Positions 84 to 18,362 of a stretch of 64,000 nt of DNA are shown piece after piece; within the stretch, counting starts at the first letter, position 1; every line of letters starts with the position of its first letter. Source of the stretch: Candidatus Levilactobacillus faecigallinarum (GTDB lineage: Bacteria > Bacillota > Bacilli > Lactobacillales > Lactobacillaceae); NCBI GenBank assembly GCA_019113985.1, contig DXGJ01000023.1:1-64000 (forward strand). The letters run 5' to 3'. A program made the position numbers and the translations under genes. The notes beneath the pieces were generated by a model. The model had not been told where the DNA came from. It searched no databases and saw only the letters and a program-made list of their open reading frames with translations.

Positions 84-165
84 TGCAGGTGAAGGGACTC
101 GAACCCCCACGTCATAAGACACTAGAACCTAAATCTAGCGCGTCTGCCAGTTCCGCCACACCTGC
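84..165 (-). tRNA. tRNA-Leu (TAG)
   Basis: Reverse complement GCAGGTGTGGCGGAACTGGCAGACGCGCTAGATTTAGGTTCTAG...GGTTCGAGTCCCTTCACCTGCA; class II variable arm; anticodon loop TTTAGGT. Confidence 0.95.
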
Positions 166-201
166 ATGGTGACGATGGTTCCATAGGAACCGGAGTCCCG
201 A

Positions 202-274
202 TGGAGGATACAGGGCTCGAACCTGTGACCCTCTGCTTGTAAGGCAGACGCTCTCCCAACTGAGCTAATCCTCC
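202..274 (-). tRNA. tRNA-Val (TAC)
   Basis: Reverse complement GGAGGATTAGCTCAGTTGGGAGAGCGTCTGCCTTACAAGCAGAGGGTCACAGGTTCGAGCCCTGTATCCTCCA; full cloverleaf. Confidence 0.95.
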
Positions 275-4704: not shown

Positions 4705-4890
4705 AGTCAATATCGTTGAAAGCGCCCCGCACCCCATATATGGATGCGACAGTCCCTGATCTGTTGAACCAGGACCCAACCCACCGATTAGGTAACTCTC
4801 GGTGAATTTCGGCGGTCGCCCCTTTAACACGTCCTCTCCGGTGATACCCACCTCAGACATGCGACTCTTGTTGACCGCGCCTCTTCTATT
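4705..4890 (-). promoter_or_regulatory. Lysine riboswitch (L-box)
   Basis: Minus strand AGAGGCGCG ... AAGGGGCGACCGCCGAAA ... GGTTGGGTCCTGG ... GGGACTGTCGCATC matches the L-box conserved blocks. Confidence 0.9.
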
Positions 4891-4939
4891 CGATAAACGT
4901 AGTATACCATCCTAAGAAGACATTGCAAGGGTAAAAACG

Positions 4940-12158: not shown

Positions 12159-13649
12159 GTGGGTAAAGCAATTGATACCAACGGAAAGCCTTATAGCCGG
12201 AGCTTGCTAGTTGCGCTCCTGTTAATCGGGACATTCTGTACGGTTTTGAATCAAACGATTTTAAGTACCGCCTTTCCAACCTTAATGAAGGCGTTCGACG
12301 TCAACACGTCGACGGTTCAATGGTTGACGACGGGTTTCTTACTGGTCAATGGGATTATGATTCCCATCAGTGCTTGGCTGATTAACACCATCAGTTCCAA
12401 GTGGTTGTACATCGGCGCGATGTCGATTTTCTTAGTCGGGACCATCCTCTGCTGGTCCGCCATCAGCTTCCCAATGCTGCTGATTGGTCGGTTAGTTCAG
12501 GCCGTTGGGGTCGGGGTTTCGATGCCACTACTCCAAACCATGATGCTGACCATCTTCCCAGCGAACAAGCGGGGAACTGCCATGGGATTAGCCGGAATCG
12601 TTATCGGGTTAGCACCTGCCATTGGCCCAACCTTATCCGGGTGGGTCATCGATAACCTGAGCTGGCGAGACCTCTTTGGGATGATTATTCCTATCGTTAT
12701 TGTTGTCATCATTGCCAGTTTCTGGGTCATGCGGAGCGTCTTGGAGACCGAAAAGTCCCCATTGGACATCTGGTCCGTTCTCCTCTCCACGGTTGGTTTT
12801 GGGAGCATGCTCTACGGCTTCTCCTCCGTTGGGGACGATGGCTGGGGCAGTGCCAAGGTTCTGACCACCCTTATCGTTGGTCTGATCTTCGTGGTTCTCT
12901 TCATCTGGCGTCAACTGCGGATGGACGATCCATTCTTGAACTTCCGCGTTTACAAGTCTAAGGAATTTACGGTTGCCGCTATCCTGAGTTCCGTGGTCAT
13001 GATGGCCATGGTCGGGGTCGAAATGGTCATTCCACTGTATCTGCAAATGGTCAAGGGCATGTCCGCCTTCCATTCTGGGTTGACTCTGTTGGCTGGTGCC
13101 CTAATGATGGGGGTTATGAGCCCCATTACCGGTCGGGCGTTTGACCGCTTCGGCGCCAAGCGCTTAGCCATCATGGGGATGTTCCTTCTGACGGTTGGGA
13201 CGTTACCATTCGCCTGGATCACCAAGGATTCATCGACGCTGTACATCGTGATTCTCTATGCTATTCGGATGTTCGGGATTGCCATGGTCATGATGCCAGC
13301 CACCACGGCCGGGATGAACGCCCTGCCAATGAACCTGATCAGTCACGGGACCGCCGTCAACAACACGCAACGGCAAGTGGCTAGTTCCGTGGGGACGGCC
13401 ATCTTGGTCAGTGTCTTGACCAACGTAACCAAGAACCAGATGCCCGCTAAGCACGTGTTGACCTCTAACCCACTGGGGTACGCCAACGGCGCCATCAACG
13501 CCACCTTGTCCGGTTACCACGCCGCCTTCTGGATTGCCATTGGGTTCAGCGTCCTGGCACTGGTCGTTGCCTTCTTCTTAAAGGGCAGTAACCACTCCAC
13601 TCACGTGACCGACGTTCAACCGGAAACTGATAAGGGAGGTGCCGCATAA
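12159..13649 (+). CDS. MFS multidrug efflux transporter, DHA2 (EmrB/QacA) family; GTG start
   Basis: 14-TM-type DHA2 features: GTFCTVLNQTILSTAFPTLMKAF, GLVIGLAPAIGPTLSGW-like motif C. Confidence 0.93.
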   Translation: MGKAIDTNGKPYSRSLLVALLLIGTFCTVLNQTILSTAFPTLMKAFDVNTSTVQWLTTGFLLVNGIMIPISAWLINTISSKWLYIGAMSIFLVGTILCWSAISFPMLLIGRLVQAVGVGVSMPLLQTMMLTIFPANKRGTAMGLAGIVIGLAPAIGPTLSGWVIDNLSWRDLFGMIIPIVIVVIIASFWVMRSVLETEKSPLDIWSVLLSTVGFGSMLYGFSSVGDDGWGSAKVLTTLIVGLIFVVLFIWRQLRMDDPFLNFRVYKSKEFTVAAILSSVVMMAMVGVEMVIPLYLQMVKGMSAFHSGLTLLAGALMMGVMSPITGRAFDRFGAKRLAIMGMFLLTVGTLPFAWITKDSSTLYIVILYAIRMFGIAMVMMPATTAGMNALPMNLISHGTAVNNTQRQVASSVGTAILVSVLTNVTKNQMPAKHVLTSNPLGYANGAINATLSGYHAAFWIAIGFSVLALVVAFFLKGSNHSTHVTDVQPETDKGGAA

Positions 13650-14374
13650 TGATTATTATTACGCTCATTTTGTCGGTCGTCCTGGCATTCGTATTCTACG
13701 TTTACATGCACAACCGCGTTTTAAGCAACATCTTGACGGTCTTGATGATTGTCATCATGGGATTCAGTACCCTCTTCATCGTGAAAAACGACCACGACCA
13801 TTACGGCCTGCATAACGTTACCCAGACCACCACGCAAAAGATTTACTCAGCGTCGCCGTCGAAGCAGATGCCAATGGTGATCTACCAATCCGTCGGCACG
13901 GCAGACAAGCACCGGGTCTACGTTTACAAGACCAGCGCTGACGCCAAGAAGACGGCTCACACCAAGGCCAAGGTCACCACGACCAACGTGGTCAAGCGCA
14001 CGACGGGTAAGAACCGCATCGTGACCACCAAAACCTACCGTGAGTACAAGAACAGCACCTACAAGTTCTGGTTCGGTCTCGCGGGGAACGGTCACCAGTA
14101 CGTGAAGGAAACCAACACGATTTACCTGAACAAGAACTGGACCGTTCTAAGTGCCACCCAAGCCAAGCAACTTCAAAAGTTAGCGAAGTCCAAGAGCTTC
14201 CAAGCAAAACAAAAGACTGCCGCTAAAGCCTACGTTCAAAAGCAGGTCATGGCCGCTATGACCAAGAACCCTAGCATGAGCGCTGCCCAACGGCAACAAG
14301 TGATCAAGCAAGCTACGGCTGCTTACCAAGCCCAAGCCATGCAACAACTGATCAAGCAAGTTAAACAAAACTAG
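13649..14374 (+). CDS. DUF4811-like membrane-anchored protein
   Basis: Two N-terminal TM segments then a Lys/Gln-rich extracytoplasmic domain; start overlaps stop of the MFS gene. Confidence 0.7.
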   Translation: MIIITLILSVVLAFVFYVYMHNRVLSNILTVLMIVIMGFSTLFIVKNDHDHYGLHNVTQTTTQKIYSASPSKQMPMVIYQSVGTADKHRVYVYKTSADAKKTAHTKAKVTTTNVVKRTTGKNRIVTTKTYREYKNSTYKFWFGLAGNGHQYVKETNTIYLNKNWTVLSATQAKQLQKLAKSKSFQAKQKTAAKAYVQKQVMAAMTKNPSMSAAQRQQVIKQATAAYQAQAMQQLIKQVKQN

Positions 14375-14398
14375 TCGAATAGAAGCGATTTACCCCAA

Positions 14399-14438
14399 CA
14401 GGGCGCCCCACCATTTCCGGTGAGACGCCCTGTTTTTG
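14399..14438 (+). terminator. Terminator of MFS-DUF4811 operon
   Basis: CAGGGCGCCCCACC...GGTGAGACGCCCTG-TTTTTG. Confidence 0.85.
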
Positions 14439-14449
14439 AATTTATATTA

Positions 14450-14675
14450 CTTGTGGCACCGCCCACTCCACTGTACCGACCAATTGTCCTGACAGCTAGG
14501 TAGACCGGTAACCAACGCTACACGCCGCCGAGTATTGGTACCGTAGTGGGCACGACTCTGAAGCTACGCGAAAACCACGCGCATCTCCAGAGCTCGGCCT
14601 TGTTGTAACCCGACTGAGGAACGTCGGCTAACAGCAATTTCACCACGGTACCAAAGTCGGCTCTGTTTCGCTGAC
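14450..14675 (-). repeat. Structured intergenic repeat, copy 1 (inverted relative to copy 2)
   Basis: Minus-strand sequence aligns to copy 2 along most of its length; core three-way-junction fold at 14528-14660. Confidence 0.85.
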
Positions 14676-14966
14676 ACTGGTCTAAAGTTAAATGGTTGTG
14701 TTGTTTTTAAGCCACACTGACTAAACAGATTTGCAAAAATAATTTCTGAGACAAGTTTGAGAAAGTTAATGTCTAAAGCGTTTGTCAGTAAAACTGACAA
14801 GCAATTAATCATTAAATTGCATCAAGCACCTGTACCGCGGTTACTACTGGTTATTTGGTAACCCAATCAATAATTGCGCTAGGGCCGTTCGTTGAATTGA
14901 CCATATGATGTTAGAACGTTCAGTTATGGATGCCGATGGAAAATCCGTCGACTAGTAATCGGCTAT

Positions 14967-15140
14967 GTTAGCGGAGCGGAGACGACTTTGGCCCTGTGGT
15001 GAAATTGGTGTTGGCTGGCGTATTTTGCCAGCCTACAGCAAGGCCGAGCTTCGGAGACGCACGTGGGTTGCGCGTGGCTTCGAAGTCGTGCCCACTACAG
15101 GGGCAATTAGTCGGTGGAGTGGAGCGGGTGGTGCTACAAC
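14967..15140 (+). repeat. Structured intergenic repeat, copy 2
   Basis: GTTAGCGGAGCGGAGACGACTTTGG...AGTCGGTGGAGTGGAGCGGGTGGTGCTACAAC matches reverse complement of copy 1; core fold at 14983-15113. Confidence 0.85.
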
Positions 15141-15238
15141 CTTTCTTTAACCACTACCTTTATACCCGAAAAAAGTGCAAAAAAAATAGCGCAGGCCTAC
15201 AGCCTACCGCTATTAATGGTGTATCTTGTAACCGGGGC

Positions 15239-15481
15239 TTAAACCCGGGTCATCGTATCCTGAGCTTGCCGGCAACGAGGCATTAAGCTGGATAAGTCAC
15301 TCAAAGACGTTCCATTATCCTGAAAACACTGAATCATATCAATCCAGTACAGATCGGCATCATCGAATTCCGTCAGCGAATGCCCGGTCCCCAATAGTCC
15401 GTTCTCAACGTATTCCGCCACCCGCTGCTTGTCAACGTGCGCAGATTGCGCTAATTCAGTTAAGTTCATCTTCATCGTCAC
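15239..15481 (-). CDS. Short MerR-like regulator (80 aa)
   Basis: MNLTELAQSAHVDKQRVAEYVENGLLGTGHSLTEFDDADLYWIDMIQCF resembles a MerR HTH; divergent to azlCD. Confidence 0.65.
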   Translation of the reverse strand: MTMKMNLTELAQSAHVDKQRVAEYVENGLLGTGHSLTEFDDADLYWIDMIQCFQDNGTSLSDLSSLMPRCRQAQDTMTRV

Positions 15482-16753: not shown

Positions 16754-18175
16754 CTATTCAGCAATCAGCTTCCCGCCACCCGTTAAGGTGTAGGTCTTCC
16801 CGTTCAGCCACTTATTGGCACTGTTGCTCTTATCATAATAGACGTTATGCCCATTGGAATGGATGTGCTTCAATGCGCTCTTGGTGCTGACCAGCGCCGT
16901 AATATGGGAATCCTTGGTGACGGACCAGGTATTGTTCCCCTTGAGCGTCAGCGTGGTCTTCCCCGCGGTTGCAGCGTGGTTGATGGCCCCCGTTAGCTTG
17001 CTACCGGAGGTCAGGGCCAGTTTTAAGGTACTGCCCTTGGCCACTTCGACGTTGCCCTTTAGGGTTTGGTTCTTAGCGGTAAAGGTCAACTTACCCCCGT
17101 TACTCCCGCTAGTCCCCCAGCGATCACCGGCCAAACGAATCAAGACGTTCGACGCGTTGCTGAGTTTAACGTTGGTCAGGTTGATTTTTGCCGTGGTGTT
17201 GGTCACGTAAAATAGGGCGCCGGTGTGCGTAGAAGTCCCCTTCGACCCGTTCTTGACCGTTGACGTCAGGCTGCCATTGGTCATCGAGAAGACCGACGTA
17301 CCAACCTCGGCGTCCCCCGACATACTCTGGTATAGCATGACCCCATTATTTTTCTTTCCGGTCAGTTTCGAGTTCTTGACCGTAATACTGTTGGATCCTT
17401 CGATATCGGCGGCCTCGGCGCCCGTAGCGGTTCCGGTCACGTTAGTCGCCGTAATCTTCCCCGTCGAGTATAGGACCGGTGAGCCGTCGCCCGCAGTCTT
17501 TAGGGTCCCTTTATTCAGACTAACGGTCCCGCCGCCCCGGTCGGTCGCTAATGCGGCCGAATGACTGCCTTCAGTCGTAATGTTGGTATTGGTGGCGGTA
17601 ATCTTACCCTTATAGGTGGCGTCCAGTCCCCGCGAGGAACTCTTGGTGGTGTTGATGGTCGCATTCTTGACCGTCACGTTGGCCTGACTCCCAGTCGCGA
17701 AAATGGCGTTCGACCCAATCGACTTCGTGGTTTCGGTCAGCTTAGAAATGGTAGCTTTGCCGCCCTTGGTAACTAAGATACCGGCGTTTTGACCGAAGAA
17801 GTTACTGTTGTCCGTACTGGTGGTATTGCCCTGTTTGGTGACCTTGCTCCCGGTCAGGGTCAAGTTGCCGCCCTTTTTGACGTAAACCGCAGATTTGTTC
17901 GCGGTGGTTGACTGGATGGTCTGATTGCTCAGCTGCTTGGTCCCGGAAACGGTCGTGGTCCCCGAGAGCTTCGCGCTACTGCTGCTAGTCTGCCCCGGGG
18001 CACTGGTCCCGCTGGGCTTGCCACTGGGTTTCGTCCCACTCGGCTTGGTCTTGGCCATCGCCGGTTGGTCGGCTTGTTGCGATTGTTGCATGATTGTAGG
18101 GGCTGCTACTAAGCCCCCGAGAACCACGGCACTGGATAAAGCAATGGTAAGATTGCGTTTTGTGTTGGTTGTCAT
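16754..18175 (-). CDS. Secreted parallel-beta-helix-like protein
   Basis: Signal peptide (MTTNTKRNLTIALSSAVVLGGLVAAPTIMQ); Ser/Thr/Pro linker with PSG repeats; many N/T/G-rich rungs (NLTLTGSKV, ITATNTNITTEGS, ITVKNSKLTG). Confidence 0.75.
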   Translation of the reverse strand: MTTNTKRNLTIALSSAVVLGGLVAAPTIMQQSQQADQPAMAKTKPSGTKPSGKPSGTSAPGQTSSSSAKLSGTTTVSGTKQLSNQTIQSTTANKSAVYVKKGGNLTLTGSKVTKQGNTTSTDNSNFFGQNAGILVTKGGKATISKLTETTKSIGSNAIFATGSQANVTVKNATINTTKSSSRGLDATYKGKITATNTNITTEGSHSAALATDRGGGTVSLNKGTLKTAGDGSPVLYSTGKITATNVTGTATGAEAADIEGSNSITVKNSKLTGKKNNGVMLYQSMSGDAEVGTSVFSMTNGSLTSTVKNGSKGTSTHTGALFYVTNTTAKINLTNVKLSNASNVLIRLAGDRWGTSGSNGGKLTFTAKNQTLKGNVEVAKGSTLKLALTSGSKLTGAINHAATAGKTTLTLKGNNTWSVTKDSHITALVSTKSALKHIHSNGHNVYYDKSNSANKWLNGKTYTLTGGGKLIAE

Positions 18176-18362
18176 GAGAATACCCTCCCTTTGATCGTTC
18201 GGCATGACGATTGCTTTGCCTATCTTGGTTTTACCGTCCGAACCTTAAAACTAGCCGTGACTTAACCAAACCTTTGCAAACTTACCCCTTTCGCTCAAAA
18301 ATACTGCAGAAAAAAACGGACTGCCCAGCCAGGGGCAATCCGTTCATAAGTGTCGTTTGACG

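What the first reader, a model, noticed from the sequence alone, without database searches (positions are those of the whole stretch)
14450..15140. Two inverted copies of a structured repeat whose helices are preserved by compensatory changes
Seen directly: the minus strand of 14528-14660 and the plus strand of 14983-15113 are diverged copies of one ~130-nt element. Both fold by hand into an outer stem with two inner hairpins. Outer stem: copy 1 TTGGTACCGTGGTG/CACTACGGTACCAA, copy 2 TTGGCCCTGTGGTG/CACTACAGGGGCAA. Inner hairpin 1: copy 1 CCGAC/GTCGG, copy 2 GGCTGGC/GCCAGCC. Inner hairpin 2: copy 1 CTCTG/CAGAG, copy 2 CTTCG/CGAAG. Bases differ between copies but mostly still pair, which implies selection on structure (RNA or DNA hairpin). 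Flanking homology extends to ~225 and ~175 bp. I do not recognise a named family and there is no ORF in common.
Basis: seen in the sequence. Interest (0 to 1): 0.85.

Follow-up and report, generated by a model that had tools for sequence, protein, structure and literature searches.

The report
Paired folded repeats of Lactobacillaceae genomes
The two mirrored copies are the ends of one of dozens of roughly 600-700-base insertions scattered through Levilactobacillus and many related lactic acid bacteria; each end folds into a T-shaped structure that evolution keeps while the letters change, which points to an undescribed family of mobile DNA that spreads as folded single strands.

Summary
The repeat (E) is a three-way junction of about 160 nt: an outer stem with two inner hairpins. 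A covariance model finds 71 copies in this genome, at least 90 in L. brevis and 157 in 1.2 Mb of L. spicheri. It occurs in 13 of 40 Lactobacillaceae genera sampled and in 0 of 300 other genomes of the class.

Covariation is overwhelming: 35 of 41 core pairs change on both sides. The constraint lies on one strand. G-U outnumbers A-C about 10 to 1, and the sense strand folds better in 37 of 37 copies.

New here is an orientation law. Neighbouring copies almost always point outward (<-E spacer E->): 88 against 1 in three genomes, even when the two ends belong to different sequence classes. Units are intergenic, spacers mostly unrelated, and the window site is empty in L. spicheri (40 nt left, 42 expected).

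Best reading: a family-specific, non-autonomous mobile unit whose two folded ends are recognised as single strands. Its architecture resembles REPINs, but the ends are much larger and it is not tied to a Y1 transposase. I found no Rfam family and no paper describing it. The mobilising enzyme is unknown; an RNA role is not excluded.

The parts
14440..15172 (.). the whole inserted unit (approximate limits), lying between the facing 3' ends of two convergent genes
   Evidence: Removing it leaves 42 nt between the aligned flanks, against 40 nt at the same place in L. spicheri (sequences)
14516..14676 (-). left terminal element E: outer stem plus two hairpins, sense strand pointing left (outward)
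   Evidence: fold; alignment A1; pairs; model hit 14542-14647 minus, 95.7 bits
14966..15126 (+). right terminal element E: same fold, sense strand pointing right (outward)
   Evidence: fold (RNA; DNA); model hit 14995-15099 plus, 101.2 bits
14677..14965 (.). spacer between the two ends; no conserved sequence or ORF, no excess of promoter-like sites in spacers as a class
14451..14489 (-). fragment of a second outer tail, left of the left E
   Evidence: blast cluster; sequence
14397..14434 (.). terminator-like hairpin of the upstream gene, outside the unit
   Evidence: inverted repeat I3; a terminator-like hairpin occupies the same place in L. spicheri
15177..15219 (.). terminator-like hairpin (AAAAAAAATAGCGCAGG...CCGCTATT) of the convergent downstream gene, outside the unit and alignable with L. 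spicheri
13649..14374 (+). flanking gene, DUF4811 protein
   Evidence: PF16069, 1e-54
15239..15481 (-). flanking gene, small MerR-type regulator
   Evidence: PF13411, 8e-8

Best explanation
The window holds one copy of a non-autonomous mobile DNA unit of Lactobacillaceae. The unit is two large folded ends (E, about 160 nt, three-way junction) facing outward around a 150-600 nt spacer of little or no sequence constraint. SHOWN: high copy number, intergenic placement, an empty orthologous site, whole-unit dispersal in one genus, covariation, single-strand polarity, and the outward-pair law even when the two ends are of different sequence classes. INFERRED: the ends are recognised as folded single strands (so selection keeps pairing, mismatches and polarity, not letters) by an enzyme acting in trans; unlike ends can work together because they share the core fold; loss of one end gives dead solo copies. 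The enzyme is not identified.
For: Copies: 71 in own genome, 10-97 in 23 of 24 congeners (counting capped), 157 in 1.2 Mb of L. spicheri, 90 in L. brevis CD0817, all on its largest contig, the chromosome. Orientation within about 1 kb, outward:inward: own 20:0, L. spicheri 48:0, L. brevis 20:1. In L. brevis, 9 of 10 copies inspected that looked solo to the model have a partner of another class on the 5' side. Window site empty in L. spicheri, 40 nt against 42 expected. In two genomes of another genus (g29) the complete ~730-bp unit recurs many times at 77-86% identity with unrelated flanks. Covariation. Strand polarity: G-U:A-C 113:11 and 320:44; sense folds better in 37/37 and 137/146. Units avoid divergent gene pairs: 4 of 46, against 70 of 289 long intergenic gaps. 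Spacers: 28 of 48 units in L. spicheri... most units share no spacer similarity with any other.
Against: No transposase or autonomous copy was found; two wide pairs inspected enclose ordinary genes. No target-site duplication was found in 25 g29 copies. About a third of L. spicheri copies (56 of 157) are solo to the model, and most of these show no obvious folded partner. At sites occupied in both own genome and L. spicheri the spacers are not homologous, so insertion of intact units is not directly shown there. No movement between strains of one species was tested.
Confidence: 0.6

Rival explanations
1. E is a structured RNA (or a pair of divergent RNAs) with a function in the cell, for example regulation or stability of neighbouring transcripts; the repeats are gene-like copies.
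For: The constraint is single-stranded with frequent G-U pairs. Mismatched and bulged positions in the helices are conserved. RNA and ssDNA cannot be told apart from the sequence.
Against: No excess of outward promoter-like sites in 62 spacers (Wilcoxon P 0.95 and 0.60), T-runs 3' of E in only 8%, no fixed relation to neighbouring gene direction, loci not conserved between species. Apical loops are T-rich (59% and 54%), which does not point to common stable RNA tetraloops.
Confidence: 0.2
2. A chromosome-architecture element like BIMEs: inverted palindromes at gene ends that bind gyrase or a nucleoid protein, kept for that use.
For: Intergenic, enriched between convergent genes (15 of 46 units against 55 of 289 long gaps), inverted pairs.
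Against: Double-strand protein binding does not predict compensatory change or a preferred strand. No positional trend relative to replication halves was found in L. brevis (P 0.40 with the origin taken at base 1).
Confidence: 0.07
3. A retro-element like a SINE: the RNA is copied back by a reverse transcriptase supplied in trans.
For: No target-site duplication, a single-strand constraint, E always at the 3' side of the sense strand.
Against: Two outward RNAs in one unit are hard to copy as one molecule; the ~730-bp unit with both ends disperses whole in g29. No reverse transcriptase was looked for.
Confidence: 0.08

Closest known systems
REPINs / BIMEs (inverted REP doublets, RAYT-associated; PMC3116915)
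   Same: High-copy, extragenic, inverted pairs of imperfect palindromes around a spacer; doublets are the unit and singlets occur; predicted to fold in ssDNA or mRNA.
   Different: Each end is about 160 nt with a three-way junction rather than a REP of about 20-60 bp with an imperfect palindromic core; spacers of 150-600 nt; ends of one unit may be of different classes; carriers without any Y1 transposase (RAYT superfamily) exist; Lactobacillaceae only as far as sampled.
MITEs (miniature inverted-repeat elements of DDE transposons)
   Same: Short, non-coding, dispersed, inverted ends.
   Different: No target-site duplication found; the ends are conserved in structure and strand polarity, not in sequence. 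One relative (G099, genus g26) does sit between possible short terminal inverted repeats.
bcr1 repeat of the Bacillus cereus group (cited in PMC2267715)
   Same: A mobile, intergenic, stem-loop-forming repeat of about 150 nt in a low-GC Gram-positive group.
   Different: Not compared by sequence here; no outward-pair law is known to me for bcr1 (from memory).
AAV inverted terminal repeats (analogy only, from memory)
   Same: A T-shaped outer stem with two arms at both ends of a unit, each 3' end of the duplex carrying the folding strand.
   Different: No Rep protein and no virus here; an architectural likeness only.

Membership tests
REPIN / REP-RAYT system | inverted doublets of an imperfect palindrome, extragenic, high copy | tested here: met
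REPIN / REP-RAYT system | associated RAYT (Y1 transposase, PF01797) in the genome | tested here: not met
   No Y1 domain in E-rich G003, G006, G012, G017, G023 (against copy numbers). The single Y1 gene of L. spicheri (G005:C14:71708) is 2.2 kb from the nearest model hit.
REPIN / REP-RAYT system | short REP (about 20-60 bp), hairpin with a GTAG or CGTC tag | tested here: not met
   E is about 160 nt with a three-way junction; a terminal tag was not searched for separately
MITE of a DDE transposon | terminal inverted repeats of fixed sequence | tested here: inconclusive
   Own-genome outer tails share GCCANCAACGACCAA; G099 copies show possible TIRs; other classes have different tails
MITE of a DDE transposon | target-site duplication | tested here: inconclusive
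   None found in 25 g29 copies, but the exact ends are uncertain and copies are 77-86% diverged
Known Rfam RNA family | covariance-model score above the gathering cut-off | tested here: not met
bcr1-like repeat | sequence or structure homology to bcr1 | not tested

The most novel reading that the evidence does not exclude
A new kind of bacterial mobile DNA: a unit with two interchangeable T-shaped ends, moved as folded single strands by an enzyme other than a Y1 transposase, possibly by priming or resolution at the folded 3' ends much as parvovirus terminal repeats work.
Probability: 0.3. Interest if true: 0.85.

Novelty: new variant of a known kind. Interest (0 to 1): 0.62.

Why it matters
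If right, many food-fermenting lactobacilli carry tens to more than a hundred copies of an undescribed mobile element whose ends are under strong structural selection and obey a strict orientation law. It offers a natural library of structure variants of a single-strand-recognised DNA or RNA end, and a clear search target (an enzyme present in carriers). It also explains assembly breaks and long non-coding gaps in these genomes, and warns that structural-RNA screens will pick it up as an apparent new RNA.

Tried and rejected
Rfam at gathering and at permissive thresholds: nothing. Y1 transposase as mobiliser: patchy, absent from several E-rich genomes. Phage and plasmid collections by distant blastn with the window copy: no match; divergent classes could be missed. 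Viral contigs pattern search: the server gave no answer twice. Autonomous version: wide outward pairs in L. brevis (L220) and L. spicheri (L095) enclose ordinary genes. Target-site duplications: none. Replication-strand bias in L. brevis: none. Promoters in spacers: no excess. Spacer homology at shared sites: none. Hidden folded partners of L. spicheri solo copies: few (for example L101). Literature: no description found in the held library, which lacks most subscription papers.

Full report
OBSERVATION. Copy 1 (minus strand, 14516-14676) and copy 2 (plus strand, 14966-15126) are 75% identical inverted copies. Each folds into an outer stem with two inner hairpins (DNA parameters give the same fold for copy 2). 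Rfam has no match. The finding is confirmed.

FAMILY. A DNA search of the window's own assembly (65 contigs, 72% complete) gave 126 matches, 74 clusters after local analysis. Alignment A1 of 37 full copies gives a consensus with 54 pairs, 36 of them with two-sided compensatory change. A covariance model of the 103-nt core (R1) finds 71 copies in the own genome. The genus is Levilactobacillus, from named orthologues of the neighbouring gene. G005 is L. spicheri DSM 15429 and G004 is L. brevis CD0817, both judged by matching contig lengths. R1 finds 10-97 copies in 23 of 24 congeners and none in 16 genomes of other families of the order. It hits 70 of 251 genomes and 13 of 40 genera of the family, with only 15 candidates scored per genome, so these counts are floors. 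In a sample of 301 genomes of the class it hits only the own genome. The model was built on one species, so absence means absence at its sensitivity.

STRUCTURE UNDER SELECTION. In 150 L. spicheri copies, 95.6% of cells pair (79.0% after shuffling), 35 of 41 pairs have two-sided changes, and sliding the partner destroys the signal. That alignment was fitted to the model; A1 was aligned by sequence only and shows the same. The strand matters: G-U pairs outnumber A-C 113:11 in A1 (39:11 after leaving out the pairs where G-U is the rule) and 320:44 in A3, and the sense strand folds better in 37 of 37 and 137 of 146 copies. A double-stranded cruciform would not show this. Helix mismatches are conserved. 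In the outer stem, by my reading, two 3-by-3 internal loops of the form GNA/GNA are separated by two covarying pairs. Apical loops are T-rich.

ORIENTATION LAW. In L. spicheri, neighbouring model hits on opposite strands within 1 kb point outward in 48 cases and inward in none; own genome 20 and 0; L. brevis 20 and 1, the single inward case being the 893-nt gap between two successive units. Same-strand neighbours exist (3, 10 and 5), so arrays such as - - + + occur, with minus copies on the left and plus copies on the right. The two ends of a unit are often of different classes that share the core but have unlike outer stems. In L. brevis, copies that looked solo to the model had a partner of another class on the 5' side in 9 of 10 inspected loci. 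In L. spicheri 56 copies remain solo to the model, and a scan for hidden folded partners found few, so solo copies do exist there.

MOBILITY. At the window site L. spicheri has 40 nt where 42 are expected without the unit. In the own genome the unit lies between terminator-like hairpins of two convergent genes. Two further own-genome sites (L013, and less exactly L022) also look empty in L. spicheri, while several others are occupied in both species but with no spacer homology, so those are either independent insertions or spacers that turn over fast. Spacers of most units share no similarity with any other unit. In genus g29 the full ~730-bp unit occurs in many copies at 77-86% identity with unrelated flanks. 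No target-site duplication was seen in 25 copies. Units avoid divergent gene pairs.

MECHANISM. Shown: repeat family, covariation, strand polarity, orientation law, empty site. Inferred: ends are recognised as folded single strands by a factor in trans. Y1 transposases are patchy and absent from several E-rich genomes (against 28), so the RAYT route known for REPINs (PMC3116915) is not supported. No autonomous copy was found. RNA roles remain possible; promoter-like sites are not enriched in spacers.

NOVELTY. Nothing in the held literature describes this family, with the caveat that many journals are not held. It works most like REPINs but fails the RAYT and size criteria, so it is reported as a new variant of that general kind rather than as a member.

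Noticed in passing
window 4712-4893 (-): Lysine riboswitch (RF00168, 113.9 bits).
   Followed up: no
window 84-274 (-): Two tRNA genes (RF00005).
   Followed up: no
window 16754-18205 (-): 483-aa secreted-looking protein rich in repeats, with no Pfam match.
   Followed up: no
G000 contigs C5, C6, C16, C39 (starts), C19, C20, C60 (ends): Several contigs of this assembly begin or end inside an E copy, so the repeat probably breaks short-read assemblies.
   Followed up: partly
L174-L177 (G099, genus g26): Solo E copies inside a roughly 400-bp element with possible terminal inverted repeats GTTAGTGTAAAGTTTCTC / GAGAAAAAGTTGACACTTAC, unlike the paired units.
   Followed up: partly
L208-L227 (L. brevis): The L. 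brevis form of E carries additional sequence forming a third hairpin on the 3' side of the core.
   Followed up: partly
L137 13033-13133 (-) and L101 about 967: A chimera of two E classes and a degenerate partner, suggesting that solo copies arise by deletion between ends.
   Followed up: no
G022 (same genus): A congener with no hit by the model in 97 scored candidates: useful as a negative control for finding the enzyme.
   Followed up: no
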